From Rhizobium leguminosarum bv. trifolii WSM1325 (GTDB lineage Bacteria > Pseudomonadota > Alphaproteobacteria > Rhizobiales > Rhizobiaceae), in NCBI GenBank assembly GCA_000023185.1, contig CP001622.1, positions 682,001 to 746,000 of the forward strand: 64,000 nt of DNA. Reading direction: 5' to 3'. The translations under genes were made by a program, and so were the position numbers. Below the pieces are notes generated by a model. It saw only the letters and a program-made list of their open reading frames with translations. It did not search any database and was not told the origin of the DNA. The first letter of the stretch is position 1. Every line of letters begins with the position of its first letter. Of this stretch, positions 16,352 to 26,472 are shown piece after piece.

Positions 16352-16374
16352 CTAAAGCGTGTGACGCGCTTTAG
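16352..16374. terminator. Palindrome overlapping the stop codon of the 16371 gene
   Basis: CTAAAGCG (16352-16359) pairs with CGCTTTAG (16367-16374), and the TAA stop of the minus-strand gene lies inside the arm. A related AAAGCGC...GCGCTTT palindrome overlaps the stop codon at the other end of the cassette (23119-23144). It probably acts as an RNA 3' end, although no long T-run follows. Confidence 0.6.
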
Positions 16375-16946
16375 TCCTTCATCGGCTCGCCGAGCGTATG
16401 CATCAGGCGGTTCGCCCAGCCGAAGATCGCCGAGGAGAGGACGAGATCGAGAGCCTCAAGCTCGTCGAGCCCGACGTCCGCCAGCGCCTGCGCATCGGCC
16501 GCGACCGCCTCGGGCGGCGTGGTCGACAGTCGGGCTGAAAAGTTGAAGATTGCCTGGAGGTGCTCGTCGAGCGTCGCCTCGAGACCATCGGCGAACACGG
16601 CTTCGATGACATCCGTGCGTTTTGTCAGGTTGTTGAACCGGGATGCATGGACGGCGGCGCAGTAGACGCAGCGGTTGACGACGGAGGCGGCGACTGCACC
16701 CAGTTCGCGCTCGCTGGCTGCCAGTCCGTCCTTGCCGTACATGATCAGGTTGAACAGCGGCGAGCGGACCGCGAGCGTCTCGGGGTCGTGCGCCAGGGTC
16801 AGCACATAGGGCGAGATGCCCTTGTTCGACGGCGTCGTCTGCATCGCTGCATGCTGCTCGTCGGTGGCGGTCGCGAAATCGACCGGAACGACATAGGGCT
16901 GCCAGCGCGGCACTGTGGTGGTGAAGGTGTGGACGACCTCGCTCAT
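16371..16946 (-). CDS. AhpD-like alkylhydroperoxidase domain protein with CxxC (Avi_7169-type)
   Basis: The 191-residue carboxymuconolactone-decarboxylase-fold protein carries the AhpD active-site motif C93-x2-C96-x3-H100 (NRCVYCAAVHASRF). It resembles the 'alkylhydroperoxidase domain protein, Avi_7169' family, which occurs in ABC transporter/monooxygenase loci; the family name is from memory. The start overlaps the end of the 16943 gene by 4 bases, so the two are coupled. A thiol peroxidase role, or removal of a reactive by-product of the nearby monooxygenase, is inferred. Confidence 0.85.
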   Translation of the reverse strand: MSEVVHTFTTTVPRWQPYVVPVDFATATDEQHAAMQTTPSNKGISPYVLTLAHDPETLAVRSPLFNLIMYGKDGLAASERELGAVAASVVNRCVYCAAVHASRFNNLTKRTDVIEAVFADGLEATLDEHLQAIFNFSARLSTTPPEAVAADAQALADVGLDELEALDLVLSSAIFGWANRLMHTLGEPMKD

Positions 16947-17425
16947 CGCATTTCTCCGAGTAGCTTCAGGCCGGCGAGAACCCGCACCTGGTAATTGACG
17001 AAAGCCGCAAGCTCCGCGAGCCGGACGATGTCGGCGTCGGTTACGCCGACCTGGCGCAATGCCTCCACATCAGCGCGCGTGGCATCGCGCGGCGCGACCG
17101 TGAGCCGGTCGGCATGGCGAACGATCTCGGCGGTGCGGGGATCCGACACCTTCGTGTCCGGCTCGGCGAGCAAGGCTGTCGCCGGTTCGTCGGCGCGGGC
17201 AACGAGCGTGTCGTAGTGGCTTGCGAGCGCCGGGCTGCGGTTGTGGCGCGCCATGCGGGCGGCGAGCGCAGCCCTCAGGCCGTGCGACAGCCCGCCGGGA
17301 TCGCGTGGCAGAAGCACTGCGTCGTGGGCCGCTTCACTGAGGCGCAGGATCTCCGCGCGTTTGCCCATGGCTTCCGCGAGCGCGGAACCCGGCCTCACAG
17401 AGGCAAGAGTTTCGATGAGTGTCAA
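16943..17425 (-). CDS. Cysteine-free CMD domain protein (Avi_7170-type)
   Basis: The 160-residue helical protein is related to carboxymuconolactone decarboxylases (ARMARHNRSPALASHYDTLV; LAELAAFVNYQVRVLAGLKLL) and contains no cysteine. It resembles the 'CMD domain protein, Avi_7170' family that pairs with the Avi_7169 type (recalled, not searched). The pair is coupled by a 4-base overlap and could form a mixed complex in which only the partner carries the catalytic CxxC. It is divergent from the LysR gene at 17587. Confidence 0.82.
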   Translation of the reverse strand: MTLIETLASVRPGSALAEAMGKRAEILRLSEAAHDAVLLPRDPGGLSHGLRAALAARMARHNRSPALASHYDTLVARADEPATALLAEPDTKVSDPRTAEIVRHADRLTVAPRDATRADVEALRQVGVTDADIVRLAELAAFVNYQVRVLAGLKLLGEMR

Positions 17426-17586
17426 AACAAGCTCCTCAATACGTCAGCGGACATAAGTCTTAGGTAGGCCGGACCTCTCATTATGTCAAACTGGAATGCT
17501 AGGCAGACTTTGATGTGAATTTTTTATCTACAGCCAGTCGTCAAATGAGAATTGTCATGCTTTACTGACATGAAGGAGAGTGTTTG

Positions 17587-18585
17587 ATGTCCATTATGCA
17601 TTCTAACTCTTTCGATATCCGGCAGCTTGAAGCCTTCGCAGCGGTGATGTCCGCCGGCAGCGTGACCGGGGCGGCGCGACTGCTCGGCCGGTCGCAGCCG
17701 GCGGTCACAAGGCTGATCCAGGATCTGGAAGCCGATATCGGTTATGCGCTTTTGCATCGAAGCGGCCCGCGCATCAGCCCGACCGCGCGCGGTCTGCTCT
17801 TTCACGCTGAAGTGGAACGCCATCTCGCGAGCCTCGCCCACATCCGCGAACGGGCGAACGCCATCGGTCTCGATGAGCCGCCGTCGCTGACGATCGCCGC
17901 CACGCCTTCACTTGCGGCCGGCGTTCTGCCCCAGGCGATTTCGGCCGTCGCGCCGGACCTGATACCGCGTCATCTCCATGTGCAGGCGCTGGCGGCCGAG
18001 AACGTCGTGCAGGCCGTGCTCGCCCGCTCGGCGGATTTCGGGATCTCAAGCCTGCCGCTGGAGCACCCCGGCCTCGACGTGCACTGGATTGCCGAAGCGT
18101 CGTGTGTCGTCGCTCTCGCCGCCAACGATCCGCTCGCCAATGATGACGTGGTGCGTCTCTCCGATCTCGCCGAGCGCCGCATCATCACGCTCGCTAATCC
18201 TTACCGCCTGCGGCACCGCATCGACGAGGCCCTGGAACGGGCGGGTGTGGCGCCGCAACGGATGATCGACGTCAACGCCTCGCTGACGGCCCTGACGATG
18301 GTCCGGGCCGGACTGGGTGTCGCCATCGTCGAGCCGGCGACGGTCTGCGGCGTTCCGCTCGAAGGGATCGTGATGCGCGTCCTCGACCACACCATCCCCT
18401 TCCTGTTCGGCGCCATCTCGCCTGCCGCGATGCCGCTGACCCCGACGGTCGCCGCCGTGATCGATGCGGCGCGCGCGGTGGCGCTCGCGATGCCCGGTTG
18501 CCGGCTGCATGACGCAGGCGGCGTCGAAGCATTGGCCGACACCGTCTACGGCGGTAGCCAGATGACCGAGGACGTGCCGTCATGA
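17587..18585 (+). CDS. LysR family regulator of the monooxygenase/ABC cassette
   Basis: The 332-residue LysR protein has a HTH at about 9-68 (LEAFAAVMSAGSVTGAARLLGRSQPAVTRLIQDLE) and a C-terminal ligand domain. AAGGAG lies 8 bases before the ATG at 17587; the TTG one codon upstream is the alternative. It sits between the divergent AhpD-like pair and the downstream monooxygenase, which it overlaps by 4 bases (ATGA). That position suggests it controls both arms. It resembles regulators of opine or amino acid catabolism in overall form, but the ligand is unknown. Confidence 0.92.
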   Translation: MSIMHSNSFDIRQLEAFAAVMSAGSVTGAARLLGRSQPAVTRLIQDLEADIGYALLHRSGPRISPTARGLLFHAEVERHLASLAHIRERANAIGLDEPPSLTIAATPSLAAGVLPQAISAVAPDLIPRHLHVQALAAENVVQAVLARSADFGISSLPLEHPGLDVHWIAEASCVVALAANDPLANDDVVRLSDLAERRIITLANPYRLRHRIDEALERAGVAPQRMIDVNASLTALTMVRAGLGVAIVEPATVCGVPLEGIVMRVLDHTIPFLFGAISPAAMPLTPTVAAVIDAARAVALAMPGCRLHDAGGVEALADTVYGGSQMTEDVPS

Positions 18586-20072
18586 GCGACCTCTCGATGT
18601 TTCCGAACAATCTCGAAGCGCTCGAGGCACGCCTGCGGCAGGACCTTGCCTGGCTGGAGCTGCCGGCCAAGTCCTGGGTTCCTCCCCGCGTCGTCGATGG
18701 CCAAGGGGTCGTCGACGTCGTGATCATCGGTGCGGGCATGGCCGGGCTCGTGGCCTCCGCCATGCTGAAGCGGCTCGGCGTCGCCAACCACATCCTTCTC
18801 GACAAGGCGCCTGCCGGAAGCGAGGGTCCCTGGGTCACCTTCGCCAGAATGCGGACCCTTCGCTCCCCCAAGCAGCTGACCGGGCCGGCAATGGGCCTGC
18901 CGGCGCTGACGTTCCGCGCCTATTACGAGGCGCTGCATGGCCGCGATGCGTGGATCGCGCTCGACAGGGCGCCGCGTGAGACATGGATGGATTACCTGGT
19001 CTGGTACCGGCGCGTGCTTGACCTGCCGGTACGCAATGGGGTCGCCGTCGATGCGATTCGTCCGCGCGCCGACGGCCTGCTCGATGTCGTCTGCCGTCAT
19101 GATGGCCGGTCCGAAACGACGATCGCGCGCCATGTGGTGCTGGCAACGGGCCGCGACGGCCTCGGCGGTCCCTTCGTGCCGTCGATCGCCCACGGCATCG
19201 AGCGCAAGTTCTGGGCCCATACCGCCGACCCTATCGATTTCGCCGCATTGCGCGGCAAGCGGGTCGGCGTCGTCGGAGCCGGCGCCTCGGCGATGGACAA
19301 CGCCGCCACCGCGCTCGAGGCAGGTGCTGCCCGGCTTGACATGTTCGTGCGCAGGACCGACCTGCCACGGATCAACAAGTTCACCGGCATCGGCAGCCAG
19401 GGCGTGGTGCATGGCTTCGCCGGTCTGCCGGATGACTGGAAGTGGCGCTTTCTCGACTACGCCATGCGCTCGCAGACGCCGCCTCCGCGCCCGAGCGTCT
19501 TGCGTGTCAGCGCATTCCCGCAGGCCCATCTTCATCTCGGAAGCCCGATCGATCGATTGCAGCAGCAAGGCGACCATATCGTTGTGACGACGCCGAAAGG
19601 CAGCTATCCCGTCGATTTCCTGATCTTCGGCACCGGCTTCAGGGTCGACCTGAAGAACCGGCCGGAACTCGCCGCCGTCGCATCCCATATCGGCCTCTGG
19701 CGCGACCGCTTTCCTGTGCCCGCGGACATGCGAAACGACGAGCTTGAAACCTCGCCCGACCTCGGAGAGGCGTTCGAGTTCCTCGAGGCCGAGCCCGGCG
19801 CTTGCCCGGCGCTGGCCCGCATTCACTGCTTCAACTTCCCGGCCACGCTCAGCCACGGCAAGCTCACGGGCGATATTCCCGCCATCAGCGAAGGTGCCGA
19901 CCGGCTCGCGCGCGGCATCGTCAGGGCGCTGTTCGTCGCCGACCGCGAGCGTCATTTCGCCGATCTCCAGGCCTTCGATACGCCCGAGCTGCTCGGAGAC
20001 GAGTGGGCCGACGACGAGACCGCGACGTTTTCCGACCTATCTGCCGAAAGGACACCGACCCGAAATGCTTGA
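18582..20072 (+). CDS. FAD/NAD(P)-dependent oxidoreductase, flavin monooxygenase-like
   Basis: The 496 residues have two dinucleotide-binding loops, GAGMAG (50-55, FAD) and GAGASA (232-237, NADPH), plus ATG near 188-190 and FGTGF near residue 350. The segment ERKFWAHTADPIDFAALRGKRVGVVGAG is a variant of the class B flavoprotein monooxygenase fingerprint region, so N-, S- or Baeyer-Villiger-type oxygenation is likely. It overlaps both the LysR gene and the ABC ATPase gene, so it is translated with the importer. The imported compound is therefore the likely substrate. Confidence 0.9.
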   Translation: MSDLSMFPNNLEALEARLRQDLAWLELPAKSWVPPRVVDGQGVVDVVIIGAGMAGLVASAMLKRLGVANHILLDKAPAGSEGPWVTFARMRTLRSPKQLTGPAMGLPALTFRAYYEALHGRDAWIALDRAPRETWMDYLVWYRRVLDLPVRNGVAVDAIRPRADGLLDVVCRHDGRSETTIARHVVLATGRDGLGGPFVPSIAHGIERKFWAHTADPIDFAALRGKRVGVVGAGASAMDNAATALEAGAARLDMFVRRTDLPRINKFTGIGSQGVVHGFAGLPDDWKWRFLDYAMRSQTPPPRPSVLRVSAFPQAHLHLGSPIDRLQQQGDHIVVTTPKGSYPVDFLIFGTGFRVDLKNRPELAAVASHIGLWRDRFPVPADMRNDELETSPDLGEAFEFLEAEPGACPALARIHCFNFPATLSHGKLTGDIPAISEGADRLARGIVRALFVADRERHFADLQAFDTPELLGDEWADDETATFSDLSAERTPTRNA

Positions 20073-20805
20073 GATCAAAAACCTAAAGCTGTCCTACGGA
20101 AACACCCAGGTCCTCAACGGCGTCGATCTCTCGGTGAACCGCGGCGACGTGGTGTCGATCATCGGCCCCAGCGGCACCGGCAAGACGACGTTGCTGAAGT
20201 GCATCAATTATCTGGCCAAGCCGGCCTCCGGCACAATCGCCTTCGATCAGGTCAGGATGGACTACCAGAAACCGGACAACACTGCGGTCCAGGCGATCCG
20301 GCTGCGGACGGCGATGGTCTTCCAGCAGTTCAACGTCTTCAAGAACATGACCGTCATTCAGAACGTGATGGATCCGCTCGTGGTCGTGCAACGCAATTCG
20401 AAGGACGAGGCGCGTTCGATCGCCTTGCAGGAGCTTGAGCGGGTCGGCCTTTCGAACAAGATCGACAGCTACCCGTCCCAGCTTTCCGGCGGCCAGCTGC
20501 AGCGGACCGGCATTGCGCGTGCGCTGGCCGTGAAGCCGGATGTCATGCTCTTCGACGAACCGACGTCGTCGCTCGACCCCGAACTCGTCGGCGAGGTTTT
20601 GAAGGTGATCAGGGACGTCACGTCGTCCGGCATCACCTCGCTCCTCGTCACCCACGAGATGCAGTTCGCAAAGAACATCTCGAACCGCATCGTCTTCATG
20701 GATCGGGGCGTCGTCGCCGCTCAAGGCAGCCCTGCCGAGATCTTCGACACGCCCTCCAACCCGCGCCTTGCCCAGTTCCTGAATTCCGAACACTCCATCC
20801 AGTAA
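20065..20805 (+). CDS. Polar amino acid-type ABC transporter ATP-binding protein
   Basis: The 246-residue ATPase of the GlnQ/HisP type has Walker A GPSGTGKTT (34-42), the LSGGQLQR signature, Walker B VMLFDEPTSSLDPE and the switch histidine in LLVTHEMQF. The start ATG is inside the end of the monooxygenase gene (8-base overlap); the frame is open much further upstream only as a shadow of that gene. Together with the binding protein and two permeases downstream it forms a complete importer. Confidence 0.95.
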   Translation: MLEIKNLKLSYGNTQVLNGVDLSVNRGDVVSIIGPSGTGKTTLLKCINYLAKPASGTIAFDQVRMDYQKPDNTAVQAIRLRTAMVFQQFNVFKNMTVIQNVMDPLVVVQRNSKDEARSIALQELERVGLSNKIDSYPSQLSGGQLQRTGIARALAVKPDVMLFDEPTSSLDPELVGEVLKVIRDVTSSGITSLLVTHEMQFAKNISNRIVFMDRGVVAAQGSPAEIFDTPSNPRLAQFLNSEHSIQ

Positions 20806-20821
20806 AGAAAGGATGCCTGAC

Positions 20822-21646
20822 ATGTCTTCCATCAAGTCGACTTCCCGCCGCACCTTCGGCCTCGCTGTCGCCGGCGTTGCCTTTGCCCTCGCAACCGCGG
20901 GCCTATCGCATGCCGAGGACGTGCGCACCATCAAGATCGCGACGGCTGCCGAATCCAAGCCGCTCTCCTGGGGTGCCATCGGCGTCGAGCCGCAGGGTTA
21001 CGAGCCCGACGTCCTGAAGGCGATCAACGCCAAGCTGCCCCAGTACAAATTCGTCATGGAGGGTGCTGCCGACATCGCTCAGGAGACCGGCCTCGCCACC
21101 GGCAAGTACGACATCGCGACCGGCGGCTACTACCGGGCGCCCGCTCGCGAAAAGCAGTTCCTCCTTCCGGAGAGCCCGATCGGCGCCAGCCTGATCAAGA
21201 TCTACAGCCGCAAGGACAGCGGCATCAACGAAATGAAGGATCTCGTCGGCAAGAAGATCGTGCCCGTGACGGCCGGCGGCGGCATCTACAAGTTCGCCAC
21301 TGCCTGGCAGGAAAAGAACCCCGACTTCAAAATCGAGATCACCGCATCCAGCGCCGGCATTCCCTATCCGGATCGCCTGAAAGAGGTGGAGAACGGCAAA
21401 TACGACGCGCTGGTTCTGCCGTCCAACCTCGGCGAGCAGACGGTCATCGACCAGCAGAAGCTCGACGTCAAGGCGAGCGAGCCGGTCGCGATCAACAATA
21501 CCTTTGTCCTGATCCATCGCTCCGAGGAGAACAAGGCGCTCTCCGCAGACATCGACAAGGCTCTGAAGGAGCTCAAGGCCGACGGCACGCTCGCCAAGCT
21601 CTCGCAGAAATGGTTCGGCGAGGACATCACCACCTACATGAAGTAA
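20822..21646 (+). CDS. ABC transporter substrate-binding protein (amino acid type)
   Basis: The 274 residues have a signal peptide (1-29, SRRTFGLAVAGVAFALATAGLSHA) with an arginine pair that could also suit Tat, then the SBP_bac_3 fold (TIKIATAAESKPLSWGAIGVEPQGYEPDVLKAIN...). The acidic and aromatic pocket typical of amino acid binders is only partly recognisable, so the ligand is open. I choose the second ATG because AAGAAAGG is correctly spaced from it and touches the first one. It follows the ATPase by 16 bases. Confidence 0.93.
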   Translation: MSSIKSTSRRTFGLAVAGVAFALATAGLSHAEDVRTIKIATAAESKPLSWGAIGVEPQGYEPDVLKAINAKLPQYKFVMEGAADIAQETGLATGKYDIATGGYYRAPAREKQFLLPESPIGASLIKIYSRKDSGINEMKDLVGKKIVPVTAGGGIYKFATAWQEKNPDFKIEITASSAGIPYPDRLKEVENGKYDALVLPSNLGEQTVIDQQKLDVKASEPVAINNTFVLIHRSEENKALSADIDKALKELKADGTLAKLSQKWFGEDITTYMK

Positions 21647-21702
21647 CGCCGGCCAACGATACCGGCGATCAGGCCCAAGGCCGAAACAAGGAGTGTTCCG
21701 AA

Positions 21703-22410
21703 GTGGACCTATCCATCATGATCCCCGAGCTGCTCAAGGCGCTGCCGCTGACGCTTGCGATCACGTTCACGGCCATGATCGTCGGCTTCCTGCTGGCCCT
21801 GATAACGACGACGTTCCGGGTGCGCAGGATACCGGTTGTCAGCCAGCTGGCCGACCTCTACGTCTCCTATGCCCGGAGCGTCCCCGTCGTGCTCCAACTG
21901 TTCGTCGCCTTCTACGGACTGCCGCTGGTCGTCGCTCTGTTCGAGGTCGAGGATTTCGTGTCCCCGAACGTCGCGGCGATCGTCGGCCTCAGCCTCTACC
22001 ATGGAGGCTATCTTTCCGAGGTTCTGCGGCCAGCCTACCTCGCCGTGGAACGCGGTCAGCACGATGCTGCGGACAGTCTCGGATACACCTTCCTTCAGAA
22101 GATCCTTCGGGTCGTCGGACCCCAGGCAGTGCACATCGCCCTGCCAGGCTACGGCAACTCGATCATCTACCTCATCCACAACGTCGCACTGGTGATGTAC
22201 ATCGGCGCCGCGGATGTCATGGCCACCGCCCATCTCGTCATGGAGCGCGACTACAACCAGTACCAGTTCGAGACCTACCTTGTGCTGGCGGTGATCTATT
22301 CGCTGCTATGCCTCGTGGCATGGATCGTCGTGCGCTTTTTCGAAACGCGAAACGCAAGATTCGCGCCCAATACCGCACCGGCCAAGGCCACGATGATGGC
22401 AAGCGTCTGA
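21703..22410 (+). CDS. ABC transporter permease 1 (amino acid type), GTG start
   Basis: The 235-residue inner-membrane permease of the HisM/HisQ type has about five helices and the EAA-type loop DAADSLGYTFLQKILRVVGPQA contacting the ATPase. The start is a GTG with AAGGAG 9 bases upstream; the frame is open 31 codons further, but that part overlaps the end of the binding-protein gene and is not protein-like. It is followed 19 bases later by the second permease, so the channel is a heterodimer. Confidence 0.93.
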   Translation: MDLSIMIPELLKALPLTLAITFTAMIVGFLLALITTTFRVRRIPVVSQLADLYVSYARSVPVVLQLFVAFYGLPLVVALFEVEDFVSPNVAAIVGLSLYHGGYLSEVLRPAYLAVERGQHDAADSLGYTFLQKILRVVGPQAVHIALPGYGNSIIYLIHNVALVMYIGAADVMATAHLVMERDYNQYQFETYLVLAVIYSLLCLVAWIVVRFFETRNARFAPNTAPAKATMMASV

Positions 22411-22429
22411 TCGAATAGGAGGTCATCAC

Positions 22430-23122
22430 ATGTTCGATTCCGAAGTCCTTCTTCCCGATCTCTGGGACATCCTTGGCGCGGTCCCGGTGACGCTCGCCAT
22501 GGCGCTTGGCATCTTCGTTTTCTCTACGATCGTCGGCAGCCTTTTCGCGATGGTGGAATATCGGCGAGTCCCGCTGCTTCGGGAACTGGTCGTCGCCTAC
22601 AAGGTCGTCTTCAAGGGCGTTCCGATGGTCATCGTGATCTTCCTCGCCTATTACGGCCTGCCGCCGACGCTGCAGTTTCTGACCTCGCTCGTCGGCATCG
22701 ACTATAATGGTCACTCGACGCCGAACTGGATCACGCTGATCGTCGCCCTGACCGCCTGCGTCGCGGCGTTCCAGGCGGAAGTCGTGAAGGGCGCACTCAA
22801 CTCCTTCGACAACGGTCAGGCCGATGCGGCCTATTCCCTGGGCTACAAGCGCAGCCAGGTGTTCCGCCGGGTCATGCTGCCTCAGGTCATCGTCGCAGCC
22901 ATCCCGGATCTTGCCAACTCGATCATGGTGATCATGAAGGCGCTGTCGCTGGGATTTGCAATCGAGGTCGTCGACATCTTCGCGCAGTCACAGCTGACCG
23001 CGGCGCTGAACTTCTACTACCTCGAAGCCTTCCTGATCGCGGTCGTCATCTACATGGTGATCGCCTACATCGTCACCTACGCTGCCGATCGTATGGAACG
23101 GGCTCTGAGGGTATGGGCCTAA
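22430..23122 (+). CDS. ABC transporter permease 2 (amino acid type)
   Basis: The 230-residue permease is homologous in form to its neighbour, with helices at about 13-35, 55-75, 95-115, 155-180 and 195-220. The EAA loop is QADAAYSLGYKRSQVFRRVMLPQ. AGGAGG lies 7 bases before the ATG. It is the last gene of the LysR-monooxygenase-ABC operon; its TAA stop is inside a palindrome that probably ends the transcript. Confidence 0.93.
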   Translation: MFDSEVLLPDLWDILGAVPVTLAMALGIFVFSTIVGSLFAMVEYRRVPLLRELVVAYKVVFKGVPMVIVIFLAYYGLPPTLQFLTSLVGIDYNGHSTPNWITLIVALTACVAAFQAEVVKGALNSFDNGQADAAYSLGYKRSQVFRRVMLPQVIVAAIPDLANSIMVIMKALSLGFAIEVVDIFAQSQLTAALNFYYLEAFLIAVVIYMVIAYIVTYAADRMERALRVWA

Positions 23123-23144
23123 AGCGCGTCGGGCGCTTTCTTTG
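23119..23144. terminator. Palindromic 3' end of the ABC operon
   Basis: AAAGCGC (23121-23127), loop GTCGG, GCGCTTT (23133-23139), then CTTTG. The TAA stop codon at 23120-23122 is built into the left arm. The sequence is related to the palindrome at 16352-16374 that closes the other arm of the same cassette. Confidence 0.65.
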
Positions 23145-23812: not shown

Positions 23813-23941
23813 ATGCCCCCGAGCCCCGACCGCCCCTCCGTCAGCCTGCTGGGACAGTCGGCATTCTCTAGGGTGATCGGCATGGCGCTGGTCATTACCG
23901 TGCTTTGGCTGGCGATCCACTGGGCGGTTCTCTTGCCATGA
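23813..23941 (+). CDS. 42-residue membrane peptide leading the zinc importer operon
   Basis: A short ORF reads MPPSPDRPSVSLLG..., with one hydrophobic helix at about residues 21-41 (VIGMALVITVLWLAIHWAVLL) and an N-terminal cytoplasmic tail. Its stop overlaps the ATPase start by 4 bases (ATGA), and AGGA is positioned 7 bases before its ATG. It is the first coding unit after the Zur boxes. It may be a small accessory subunit of the transporter or may simply couple translation of the ATPase. Confidence 0.7.
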   Translation: MPPSPDRPSVSLLGQSAFSRVIGMALVITVLWLAIHWAVLLP

Positions 23942-24687
23942 CGCCGCTGATCCGTCTCGAGAATCTGACCGTCGCCTATAACCGGCACCCCGCCGTCCAT
24001 CATGTCTCCGGCGCCTTCGCCTCGGGCAGCCTGACGGCGATTGCCGGGCCGAACGGGGCGGGCAAGTCGACGCTGCTGAAGGCGATCATGGGTGAGCTTC
24101 GTCCCGCCGAAGGCAGGGTCGAGCATCGGCTGGGGCGGGCGGAATTCGGTTATCTCCCGCAGGCGGCCGAGATCGACCGGCGCTTTCCGATCTCGGTGAT
24201 CGACACCGTCATGTTCGGCGCCTGGAAGAAGACGGGCGCCTTCGGCCGCATCGCGCCCGCCGAGGTGAAAAGGGCAGGCGAGGCGCTCTCCGCCGTCGGC
24301 CTCGACGGCTTCGGCCGCCGCCATGTCGGGTCGCTCTCGGCCGGCCAGTTCCAGCGCGTGCTCTTTGCCCGCCTGCTGGTGCAGGATGCCGGCATCATCC
24401 TGCTCGACGAGCCGTTTACGGCAATCGATGCCCGCACCACCAGGGACCTCGTCGATATCGTCACCCGCTGGCATGGCGAGGGCCGCACAGTGATTGCCGT
24501 CCTGCACGATTTCGAGCTGGTTCGCGCCCATTTCCCGCAAACGCTGCTGCTCGCCCGCGAACTGGTCGGCTGGGGTGCGACCGCCGACGTCATGTCCTCA
24601 GTCAATCTCCTGAAGGCGCGCGCCATGGCCGAGCGCTGGGATGAGGATGCAAATGCCTGCGCACCCGAAGAGGCGCCAGCGGCATGA
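23938..24687 (+). CDS. Zinc (metal) ABC transporter ATP-binding protein, ZnuC/AztA-like
   Basis: The 249-residue ATPase has Walker A GPNGAGKST, the variant signature LSAGQFQR, Walker B IILLDEPFTAID and the switch histidine in VIAVLHDFEL. The sequence around WHGEGRTVIAVLHD resembles ATPases of AztABC-type zinc importers. It is coupled by ATGA overlaps to both the small peptide upstream and the permease downstream. Zinc specificity is inferred from the Zur boxes and the binding protein rather than from this subunit. Confidence 0.92.
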   Translation: MTPLIRLENLTVAYNRHPAVHHVSGAFASGSLTAIAGPNGAGKSTLLKAIMGELRPAEGRVEHRLGRAEFGYLPQAAEIDRRFPISVIDTVMFGAWKKTGAFGRIAPAEVKRAGEALSAVGLDGFGRRHVGSLSAGQFQRVLFARLLVQDAGIILLDEPFTAIDARTTRDLVDIVTRWHGEGRTVIAVLHDFELVRAHFPQTLLLARELVGWGATADVMSSVNLLKARAMAERWDEDANACAPEEAPAA

Positions 24688-25556
24688 CGGCTTACGATCT
24701 CTTCCTGGCACCCTTTGCCGATTACGGTTTCATGCGCCGGGCGCTCGTCGCCTGCCTCTGCCTCGGGCTGGGCTCCGGCCCGATCGGCGTCTTCCTGATG
24801 CTGCGGCGCATGAGCCTGATGGGCGACGCGATGAGCCATGCGGTGCTGCCGGGGGCCGCCATCGGTTACCTCGTCGCCGGCTCCCTGTCGCTGACGGCGA
24901 TGGGCCTTGGCGGCCTCATCGCCGGCCTCTCGGTGGCACTGCTTTCCGGCGCCGTCAGCCGGATGACCGTGCTGCAGGAGGATGCGAGCTTTGCCAGCTT
25001 CTATCTCGCCTCGCTGGCGCTCGGCGTGCTGATCGTCTCGCTGCGCGGCTCGAATATCGATCTGCTGCATGTGCTCTTCGGCACCATCCTGGCGATCGAT
25101 GCTCCCGCTCTTTATCTGATCGGCGCGATCACCTCGCTGACCCTCGTCATCCTCGCCTTCATCTACCGGCCGCTGGTGGCCGAATGTTTCGATCCGGGGT
25201 TCCTGCGCGCCGTCGGCGGGCGCGGGCCGGTCTATCACGTGCTCTTCCTGCTGCTGGTGGTGCTGAACCTCGTCGCCAGCTTCCAGGCGCTCGGCACGCT
25301 GATGGCGGTCGGCCTGATGATGCTGCCGGCGGCCGTCGCTCAACTCTGGTCGCGCAGTCTGCCCGTGATGATGGCGATAGCAGCCGCAAGTGCTGCCGCC
25401 TCCGGCTATCTCGGCCTGATCGCCTCCTACCATCTCGAACTCGCCTCCGGCCCGACGATCATCATGACGGCGGCGGTCCTCTACGGCTTTTCTATTCTTT
25501 TCGCGCCCTCCGGCCTTGCCCGGCGCTTTTTTCCCCGCCCGCATTTGAAGGGCTGA
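24684..25556 (+). CDS. Zinc (metal) ABC transporter permease, ZnuB/AztB-like
   Basis: The 290-residue ABC-3 family permease has about eight transmembrane helices. Family hallmarks are RMSLMGDAMSHAVLPGAAIGY near the N-terminus and GTLMAVGLMMLPAAVAQLWS in the C-terminal half. It starts within the last codons of the ATPase gene (4-base overlap), and the binding-protein gene follows after 16 bases. It forms the homodimeric channel for Zn(II), or possibly Mn(II), import across the inner membrane. Confidence 0.94.
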   Translation: MTAYDLFLAPFADYGFMRRALVACLCLGLGSGPIGVFLMLRRMSLMGDAMSHAVLPGAAIGYLVAGSLSLTAMGLGGLIAGLSVALLSGAVSRMTVLQEDASFASFYLASLALGVLIVSLRGSNIDLLHVLFGTILAIDAPALYLIGAITSLTLVILAFIYRPLVAECFDPGFLRAVGGRGPVYHVLFLLLVVLNLVASFQALGTLMAVGLMMLPAAVAQLWSRSLPVMMAIAAASAAASGYLGLIASYHLELASGPTIIMTAAVLYGFSILFAPSGLARRFFPRPHLKG

Positions 25557-25572
25557 TCCCAAGGAGACTTCA

Positions 25573-26472
25573 ATGACACCGCACAGACTGCTTCTCTCCG
25601 CAGCTATCCCCGCTTTGATGGCGCTGTCGGCCGTGCCCGCTTCCGCCGAAACGCTGAAGGTGGTCGCCTCCTTCACCGTGCTTGCCGATGTCGTCAAACA
25701 GGTCGGCGGCGAACACGTCAAGGTGACGAGCCTCGTCGGGCCGAACGGCGATCCCCATGAATTCGAGCCGTCGCCGGCCGACGCGAAGAATTTGAACGCG
25801 GCTGAAGTGACCTTCGTCAGCGGCGAGGGGCTGGAAGGCTGGATGGACCGGCTGATCACCGCCTCGGGCTATAAGGGCAAGCCGGTCACCGTTTCCGAAG
25901 GCATCAACACCCGCACCATGGAAGAGGACGGCGAAAAAATCACCGATCCGCATGTCTGGAACAGCCCCGTCAACGTCAAGATCTGGGTCGCCAATATCGA
26001 AAAGGCGCTGTCATCGGCCGATCCCGCTGACGCCGCCGCCTTCAAGGCCAATGCCGAGAAATACACCAAGACGCTGGATGAACTGAACGCCTACGCCCAT
26101 GCGAAATTCGACAAGGTCGCCGACGATCGCCGCAAGGTGCTGACCAGCCATGACGCCTTCGGCTATTTCGGCCGCGAATATAATGTCAGCTTCCTGGCGC
26201 CGCTTGGCCTGTCCACAGAAAGCGAGGCCTCGGCAGCCGACGTCGCCAAGCTGATCGAGCAGATCAAGGGCGAGCACGTGAAGGCCTATTTCTTCGAGAA
26301 TTCCAACGATCCGCGCCTCGTCAAGCAGGTCGCCAAGGCAACCGGGGCCGAGCCCGGCGGCGAGCTCTATGTCGAATCCCTGTCCGACGCCAAGGGGCCG
26401 GCGCCGACCTATGAGAAGATGTTCAAATACAATGTCGACCAGCTCGCCGCCGCCATGGCGAAATCGAGCTGA
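25573..26472 (+). CDS. Zinc ABC transporter substrate-binding protein, ZnuA/AztC-like
   Basis: The 299-residue cluster A-I binding protein has a signal peptide (1-25, ending VPASA) and metal-ligand histidines H62 (GDPHEFEPS), H127 (TDPHVWN) and H193 (TSHDAFGYFG). The long His-rich loop of classical ZnuA is absent; only a short acidic loop (MEEDGEKI) is there. It therefore resembles AztC or Mn/Zn PsaA-type proteins. Zur control upstream favours zinc. AAGGAG is 7 bases before the ATG. No AztD-like chaperone gene follows; a repeat and a CDF gene do. Confidence 0.93.
   Translation: MTPHRLLLSAAIPALMALSAVPASAETLKVVASFTVLADVVKQVGGEHVKVTSLVGPNGDPHEFEPSPADAKNLNAAEVTFVSGEGLEGWMDRLITASGYKGKPVTVSEGINTRTMEEDGEKITDPHVWNSPVNVKIWVANIEKALSSADPADAAAFKANAEKYTKTLDELNAYAHAKFDKVADDRRKVLTSHDAFGYFGREYNVSFLAPLGLSTESEASAADVAKLIEQIKGEHVKAYFFENSNDPRLVKQVAKATGAEPGGELYVESLSDAKGPAPTYEKMFKYNVDQLAAAMAKSS

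What the first reader, a model, noticed from the sequence alone, without database searches (positions are those of the whole stretch)
16352..23144. Self-contained monooxygenase, AhpD-like pair and ABC importer cassette with unknown substrate
Seven overlapping or near-touching genes plus a LysR gene form one unit: cysteine-free CMD protein and CxxC AhpD-like protein on one arm; LysR, flavin monooxygenase, ATPase, binding protein and two permeases on the other. Overlaps of 4, 4 and 8 bases tie the AhpD-like pair together, LysR to the monooxygenase and the monooxygenase to the importer. The AhpD/CMD pair resembles families (Avi_7169/Avi_7170) I recall from ABC-transporter loci that usually carry a luciferase-like monooxygenase; here a class-B-type flavoprotein takes that place. 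Inference: import and oxygenation of an S- or N-containing amino-acid-like compound, with the AhpD pair removing a peroxide or reactive product.
Basis: partly seen in the sequence, partly recalled or inferred. Interest (0 to 1): 0.72.

Follow-up and report, generated by a model that had tools for sequence, protein, structure and literature searches.

The report
Rhizobial import-and-oxygenate sulfur scavenging cassette
An eight-gene cassette in a soil and root-nodule bacterium appears to import a small compound, oxidise it with a flavin enzyme and clean up with a paired redox protein; comparison with other bacteria suggests that the compound contains sulfur and is salvaged to cysteine, but this is untested.

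Summary
The eight genes are present as described. The core is LysR, a flavoprotein with a class-B monooxygenase fold, a CxxC AhpD-like protein and its cysteine-free AhpD-fold partner CMD. It is a real module: AhpD lies within 9 kb of 12 of 17 close relatives of the flavoprotein, 1 of 11 distant ones and 0 of 25 control stretches. By parsimony the importer type changes 15 times on the flavoprotein tree, so the core defines the system. The same pair accompanies a luciferase-like monooxygenase in 12 of 20 loci. Partner genes elsewhere point to sulfur: Cds1-like cysteine desulfhydrase (10 of 80 loci; 8 of 121 genomes of the order), RidA, BisC-like S/N-oxide reductase and, in some Rhizobium, desulfurase, Blh-like dioxygenase and TauE. 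Best reading: uptake and oxidative cleavage of an S-substituted cysteine-like compound, working like Bacillus S-alkylcysteine salvage with other enzymes. Substrate and reaction are inferred. Against it: no sulfur-specific gene in the window's cassette, and 0 of 9 independently sampled Cds1 genes lie near this core.

The parts
16352..16374 (-). terminator-like hairpin closing the AhpD/CMD arm
   Evidence: 8-pair stem, T-rich tail; z -2.05
16371..16946 (-). AhpD-like 'peroxidase-related' protein, 191 aa, CxxCxxxH site
   Evidence: TIGR01926 181.6 bits (cut-off 81.8); TIGR04030 145.7 (cut-off 233.15, not reached); CxxCxxxH in 116 of 116 family frames
16943..17425 (-). CMD protein, 160 aa, cysteine-free AhpD-fold partner (TTG start)
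   Evidence: TIGR04029 90.2 bits (cut-off 100.75); AhpD fold, TM 0.71 to 2pfx and 2prr; CxxCxxxH in 0 of 99 family frames
17426..17586 (.). divergent regulatory region; ATGTCAA conserved
   Evidence: alignment of 15 Rhizobium-type loci, ATGTCAA in all 15, counted by eye
17584..18585 (+). LysR-type regulator (likely ATG at 17587)
   Evidence: PF00126 + PF03466
18582..20072 (+). flavoprotein monooxygenase, 496 aa
   Evidence: PF13738/PF13434; model pLDDT 83.5; class-B monooxygenase fold
20065..20805 (+). PAAT-type ABC ATPase (GlnQ/TcyN-like)
20813..21646 (+). SBP_bac_3 binding protein (likely ATG at 20822)
   Evidence: PF00497; best PDB match YtmK 2o1m E 1.1e-16
21703..22410 (+). ABC permease 1 (GTG start proposed)
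   Evidence: PF00528 and cystine-permease-like; start chosen by reading
22430..23122 (+). ABC permease 2
   Evidence: PF00528
23121..23139 (+). hairpin after permease 2, resembling the one at the other end
   Evidence: z -0.16, not better than shuffles; repeat I2, 83%; not listed by the scan

Best explanation
A sulfur-scavenging import-and-cleave cassette. LysR reads the substrate or sulfur state and switches the divergent arms (inferred). The PAAT ABC importer brings in a small thioether compound, most likely an S-substituted cysteine or a blocked form of it (inferred). The flavoprotein, with NAD(P)H and O2, oxygenates the sulfur or the carbon next to it (fold shown, reaction inferred), so that the C-S bond breaks and a cysteine sulfenic acid or free thiol plus a carbonyl fragment result (inferred). 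The CxxC AhpD-like protein, held in a complex with its cysteine-free paralogue CMD, reduces the sulfenic acid, mixed disulfide or leaked peroxide (site shown; partnership supported by gene fusion in a relative; reaction inferred). Cysteine is then used, or in relatives is broken down further by Cds1 + RidA, or by a desulfurase and a Blh-like dioxygenase with sulfite export by TauE (genes shown, pathway inferred).
For: Core linkage: 12 of 17 vs 1 of 11 vs 0 of 25 controls; 67 and 66 of 80 loci. Cds1-like cysteine desulfhydrase (552-571 bits in four scanned, below the cut-off of 600) within 9 kb in 10 of 80 loci, 5 genera, next to CMD or RidA in L030, L033, L092 and L095 (coordinates); the family is rare in the order: 8 of 121 genomes, 9 copies. 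BisC-like S/N-oxide reductase (744.8 and 601.1 bits in two scanned, cut-off 1017.55) in 11 of 80 loci, 8 genera. R. etli and two R. tumorigenes plasmids: class-V PLP enzyme, MBL protein and TauE/SafE annotated beside the core; in R. etli the first two are SufS-like (134.8 bits, cut-off 475.1) and Blh-like (534.7, cut-off 625). CMD-AhpD fusion of 405 aa in L137. One LLM locus (L128) carries MetQ/NlpA (TIGR00363 over cut-off). C. glutamicum cg2674 (putative carboxymuconolactone decarboxylase) and peptide importer genes cg2675, cg2677, cg2678 are marked McbR* in a table of PMC2807442 (passage); that McbR is the sulfur-gene regulator is recalled. Nearest solved binding proteins are YtmK and Lmo2349; that YtmK is TcyK is recalled; TcyKLMN of Listeria is a cystine/cysteine importer (PMC9239247, passages).
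Against: No sulfur-specific gene in the window's own cassette, and no Cds1 match at E <= 1e-100 in its genome. Reciprocal test negative: 0 of 9 Cds1 copies sampled independently have the core near them. The desulfurase/Blh/TauE set is narrow: desulfurase and Blh-like in 2 of 80 loci, TauE in 1. The YtmK resemblance is unspecific: 63.5 bits for the window's protein, 61.6 for another binding protein of the same genome. The closest folds of the flavoprotein include N-hydroxylases (PvdA), tied with S. maltophilia FMO. Opine-dehydrogenase-family genes recur (8 of 80 loci) and are not explained. BisC-type enzymes reduce S- or N-oxides, so they do not exclude N. No acetyltransferase or deacetylase, which the Bacillus route needs. 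13 of 80 loci lack AhpD within 9 kb. cg2674 was not itself scanned here.
Confidence: 0.5

Rival explanations
1. Nitrogen chemistry: the flavoprotein N-oxygenates an imported amine, opine or N-substituted amino acid, the first step of its use as N or C source, and the AhpD pair handles hydroxylamine/peroxide by-products.
For: PvdA and other N-hydroxylases among the best fold matches; PF13434 match; opine-dehydrogenase-family genes in 8 of 80 loci and in L006-L009, L013, L015; Pot-type polyamine-like importers in one clade.
Against: Does not account for the Cds1-like, RidA, Blh-like, SufS-like, TauE or MetQ neighbours or for the McbR mark on cg2674, cg2675, cg2677 and cg2678.
Confidence: 0.2
2. 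Detoxification: the cassette disarms a plant or microbial organosulfur toxin (thiosulfinate, isothiocyanate conjugate, alkylated thiol) rather than feeding the cell.
For: ahpD alone gives strong allicin resistance in Pseudomonas (PMC7119367, passages); OsmC within about 6 kb of the Pantoea and Sinorhizobium cores; patchy, accessory distribution (7 of 36 same-genus genomes at 79% identity or more).
Against: Importers are attached in 90 of 109 tree rows, of seven kinds, four of them ABC, which fits uptake of a nutrient better than defence. The Pseudomonas ahpD was not compared with this family.
Confidence: 0.15
3. Loose neighbourhood: importer and monooxygenase/AhpD core are separate functions that merely sit together.
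For: The importer type changes 15 times by parsimony on the flavoprotein tree; 17 of 80 loci had no importer marker of the searched kinds.
Against: Overlapping genes in the window and repeated independent pairing with an importer of some kind.
Confidence: 0.1

Closest known systems
LLM/CMD/peroxidase importer cassettes (NCBIfam TIGR04027, TIGR04029, TIGR04030; Klebsiella KPN_01858 type)
   Same: CMD protein and AhpD-like protein adjacent, a flavin monooxygenase and an importer
   Different: flavoprotein with class-B fold instead of the luciferase-like enzyme; both CMD and AhpD below the curated cut-offs; PAAT importer instead of Dpp/Liv
B. subtilis CMO / ytmI operon, S-alkylcysteine salvage (CmoO, CmoJ; PMC10863075, part 1 of 3 of the text read)
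   Same: works alike in outline: activator, cystine-type PAAT importer (tcyJKLMN; gene list in a table of PMC2885750, passage), flavin oxygenation, need for a reductant of the sulfenic acid
   Different: no luciferase-like CmoO/CmoJ, no acetylation or deacetylation gene; AhpD/CMD pair instead of the glutaredoxin-like YtnI (that role recalled)
Mesorhizobium serpentine-soil gene cluster denovo003265-003273 (PMC5315480, passages and table)
   Same: by annotation and number order: opine dehydrogenase, flavoprotein, peroxidase-related enzyme, PAAT ATPase, binding protein, two permeases; frequency 0.86-1.00 in serpentine and 0.00 in non-serpentine strains
   Different: sequences not compared; in the passages I saw the authors discuss only the opine dehydrogenase, as a nickel-adaptation candidate
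E. coli YciW
   Same: one protein with weak CMD (36.2 bits, 118-178) and AhpD-like (43.1 bits, 250-373) matches; profile comparison with CMD 95.7%
   Different: both below cut-off, no CxxCxxxH by eye, no monooxygenase or importer directly beside it; its link to cysteine/methionine metabolism and CysB is recalled, not found in the three papers searched for it

Membership tests
TIGR01926 peroxidase-related (AhpD superfamily) | score over curated cut-off | tested here: met
   181.6 vs 81.8 bits
AhpD-type thiol enzyme | CxxCxxxH active site with upstream Glu (motif recalled) | tested here: met
   window protein ERELGAVAASVVNRCVYCAAVH; CxxCxxxH 116 of 116 frames
AhpD-type thiol enzyme | peroxide or disulfide reductase activity | not testable with these tools
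   needs purified protein
TIGR04030 (Avi_7169) | score over cut-off 233.15 | tested here: not met
   145.7: related, not a member
TIGR04029 (Avi_7170) | score over cut-off 100.75 | tested here: not met
   90.2: related, just outside
LLM/CMD/peroxidase cassette | luciferase-like monooxygenase TIGR04027 beside the pair | tested here: not met
   the gene in that place is a Pyr_redox_3/Lys_Orn_oxgnase flavoprotein
class-B flavoprotein monooxygenase | two-dinucleotide-domain fold | tested here: met
class-B FMO/BVMO | FxGxxxHxxx(F/W/Y) fingerprint (motif recalled) | tested here: not met
   found in 1 of 112 cassette-type flavoproteins; ARMxTLR in 111 of 112
B. subtilis CMO pathway | two luciferase-like enzymes CmoO/CmoJ | tested here: not met
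   none among the eight proteins scanned
B. subtilis CMO pathway | binding protein of TcyK kind | tested here: inconclusive
   best PDB match is YtmK, but 63.5 vs 61.6 bits for another own binding protein
B. subtilis CMO pathway | growth on S-alkylcysteine as sulfur source | not testable with these tools
   needs mutant growth tests
PAAT ABC importer | GlnQ-type ATPase, SBP_bac_3, two BPD_transp_1 permeases | tested here: met

The most novel reading that the evidence does not exclude
A further bacterial route of oxidative C-S cleavage for cysteine salvage: a flavoprotein family without the class-B fingerprint that acts with an obligate AhpD/CMD hetero-complex (catalytic CxxC subunit plus cysteine-free paralogue), in which two unrelated monooxygenases (LLM or this flavoprotein) have been exchanged around the same redox pair and the importer is swapped freely to suit the sulfur source at hand.
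Probability: 0.35. Interest if true: 0.7.

Novelty: new variant of a known kind. Interest (0 to 1): 0.48.

Why it matters
Plant-associated bacteria live among thioethers and cysteine sulfoxides, and how rhizobia use them is little known (my judgement, not searched systematically). If right, the cassette assigns a role to a flavoprotein family with at least 5235 relatives at E <= 1e-60 among 7997 scored candidates (not all are cassette members), to the cysteine-free CMD proteins, and to the LLM cassettes around the same pair, and makes their substrate testable with one deletion and a panel of sulfur sources.

Tried and rejected
Rejected or weakened: (1) 'The importer tells the substrate': importer type changes 15 times by parsimony, and PDB matches of one Pot-type and one Dpp-type binding protein were generic. 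(2) YtmK/TcyK resemblance as proof: control one search shows it is unspecific. (3) Cds1 as a general partner: 0 of 9 independent Cds1 loci have the core. (4) S- or N-preference from fold: tie. (5) E. coli YciW as functional stand-in: weak matches, no CxxC, regulation only recalled; three papers searched for yciW hold no mention of it in the main text. (6) A DNA search for fused CMD-AhpD genes in E. coli gave one fragment on a plasmid carrying resistance genes; annotation read only, not pursued. (7) Promoter scan: 1 site found, 1.2 expected; terminator-like sites 10 found, 4.7 expected. (8) The motif pattern had the wrong spacing and reported 'no motif' for every row; corrected. (9) Paper searches: Avi_7169/Avi_7170/'CMD domain protein' none; TIGR04027/29/30 none, one paper for KPN_01858, which rises in iron limitation as does TauC; CmoO/CmoJ with rhizobia or flavin monooxygenase, two papers, neither on rhizobia by title. 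So I found no paper on this cassette; the library lacks most subscription journals.

Rows dropped before counts and limits: the tree (quick method, long branches flagged) leaves out L010, L014 and frames under 400 aa; importer labels were set by my own rule; its 15 changes leave out the 19 rows without a recognised importer (21 changes with them). Of 35 matches in 25 genomes, 20 loci were fetched. One search aligned 15 Rhizobium-type loci only. The 80 loci are the best 80 of 581 and lean to close kin. In one search, L194 and L208 are shorter stretches (contig ends), so a neighbour could be missed. In A3, L019 and L095 were left out for a stop inside the matched range. One junk range (33 aa) was sent and gave nothing.
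Full report
1. What is there. The window is part of a 7.4-Mb genome (G000, C1:682001-746000); its flavoprotein is 97% identical to one in Rhizobium johnstonii 3841. Between 16371 and 23122 lie eight genes: AhpD-like and CMD on the minus strand, LysR, flavoprotein, ATPase, binding protein and two permeases on the plus strand. The overlaps of 4, 4 and 8 bases are correct. The two arms diverge from a gap of about 160 bases in which ATGTCAA is conserved in 15 of 15 aligned loci (counted by eye). A terminator-like hairpin stands at the AhpD end; the one behind the last permease folds no better than shuffles (z -0.16) but resembles the first.

3. A module with a fixed core and a free importer. In a sample of 398 genomes of the phylum the flavoprotein occurs in 23 (28 places at E <= 1e-40). 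AhpD lies within 9 kb in 12 of 17 loci whose flavoprotein is at least 46% identical, 1 of 11 below 45%, and 0 of 25 control stretches. In the 80 closest loci of the genome collection, AhpD is near in 67, CMD in 66. Attached importers are PAAT (Rhizobium, Pantoea, Erwinia), Pot-type (Agrobacterium, Sinorhizobium), Dpp-type, Liv-type (Burkholderia), TctC-type, MFS or a TonB receptor; by parsimony on a quick flavoprotein tree the type changes 15 times among the 90 rows that have one. Searching instead for CMD (TIGR04029) in 398 genomes gave 25; of 20 loci fetched, 12 pair the core with a luciferase-like enzyme, 7 with the flavoprotein, 1 with neither (five of the twelve confirmed as TIGR04027). 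On the AhpD tree the partner changes twice (long branches, so uncertain).

4. Sulfur. (a) Ten of 80 loci in five genera carry a Cds1-like L-cysteine desulfhydrase within 9 kb (NF052478 552-571 bits in four scanned, all below the cut-off of 600), and three carry RidA. By coordinates Cds1 lies 38 bases from CMD in L030 and overlaps it by 4 bases in L033; in L092 and L095 RidA and Cds1 follow each other. The family is rare: 8 of 121 genomes of the order, 9 copies. The reverse does not hold: 0 of those 9 copies has the core nearby. (b) Eleven of 80 loci, eight genera, carry a BisC-like S/N-oxide reductase (two scanned, below cut-off), and 12 an M24 peptidase. (c) In R. etli p42e the core lies beside genes for a SufS-like desulfurase, a Blh-like sulfur dioxygenase (both below cut-off) and a TauE/SafE protein, and genes annotated alike lie beside it in two R. 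tumorigenes plasmids. Among the 80 loci this set is narrow: desulfurase and Blh-like in 2, TauE in 1. (d) One LLM locus carries MetQ/NlpA. (e) In C. glutamicum, cg2674, 'putative carboxymuconolactone decarboxylase', and importer genes cg2675, cg2677 and cg2678 carry the mark McbR* in a table of PMC2807442 (passage read); I did not scan cg2674, but this species is the only one of 14 control genomes with a TIGR04029 match. Neither Cds1, BisC, RidA, desulfurase, TauE nor opine dehydrogenase relatives were found in the 25 control stretches.

5. How it probably works. By analogy with B. subtilis, where S-alkylated cysteine is acetylated, oxidised to the sulfoxide by CmoO and cleaved by CmoJ to a sulfenic acid that must be reduced (PMC10863075, part 1 of 3 read), I propose: import of a thioether compound; oxygenation and C-S cleavage by the flavoprotein; reduction of the sulfenic acid or leaked peroxide by AhpD with CMD; cysteine as product. 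Shown: genes, predicted folds, sites, linkage. Inferred: substrate, reaction, partnership of AhpD and CMD in this species, LysR control. The window's cassette has neither acetyltransferase nor deacetylase; blocked substrates could be taken up as such.

6. Distribution. The cassette is accessory: 7 of 36 same-genus genomes have the flavoprotein at 79% identity or more. In G000, G402 and G408 it lies within 4 kb of a znuC-like gene that is itself found in 24 of 25 genomes of the genus, own included; in G406 the two are on different contigs. A gene run with the same annotations in the same number order is nearly fixed in serpentine-soil Mesorhizobium and absent from the non-serpentine strains (PMC5315480, passages); sequences were not compared.

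7. Verdict. Real, coherent, and a variant of a known kind of cassette for which I found no functional paper. Sulfur salvage is the best-supported reading at about even odds; nitrogen chemistry and detoxification remain open.

Noticed in passing
PMC5315480 table: Mesorhizobium genes denovo003265-003273, annotated like this cassette plus an opine dehydrogenase, are at 0.86-1.00 in serpentine strains and 0.00 in others; in the passages seen only the opine dehydrogenase is discussed.
   Followed up: partly
L006, L007, L008, L009, L013, L015 and 8 of 80 genome loci: Opine-dehydrogenase-family genes recur next to the core; their role in a sulfur pathway is unexplained.
   Followed up: no
L137:7390-8604: CMD and AhpD fused into one 405-aa frame beside a luciferase-like monooxygenase and a Dpp-type importer.
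   Followed up: yes
L273:4981-6108: E. coli YciW looks like a degenerate CMD-AhpD fusion that has lost the CxxCxxxH site.
   Followed up: partly
L010:5817-15119: A distant flavoprotein relative on R. rhizogenes pAtK84b sits with nitrilotriacetate-monooxygenase-like and peptide-importer genes, with no CMD or AhpD annotated nearby.
   Followed up: no
window 16354-16377 and 23116-23139: Similar AAAGCG...CGCTTT hairpins at both ends of the cassette (83% complementary arms).
   Followed up: partly
window 23905-26472: ABC ATPase, permease and binding protein that look like a ZnuCBA zinc importer (my reading, not scanned) lie beside the cassette; the ATPase is in 24 of 25 genomes of the genus, the cassette is not.
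   Followed up: partly
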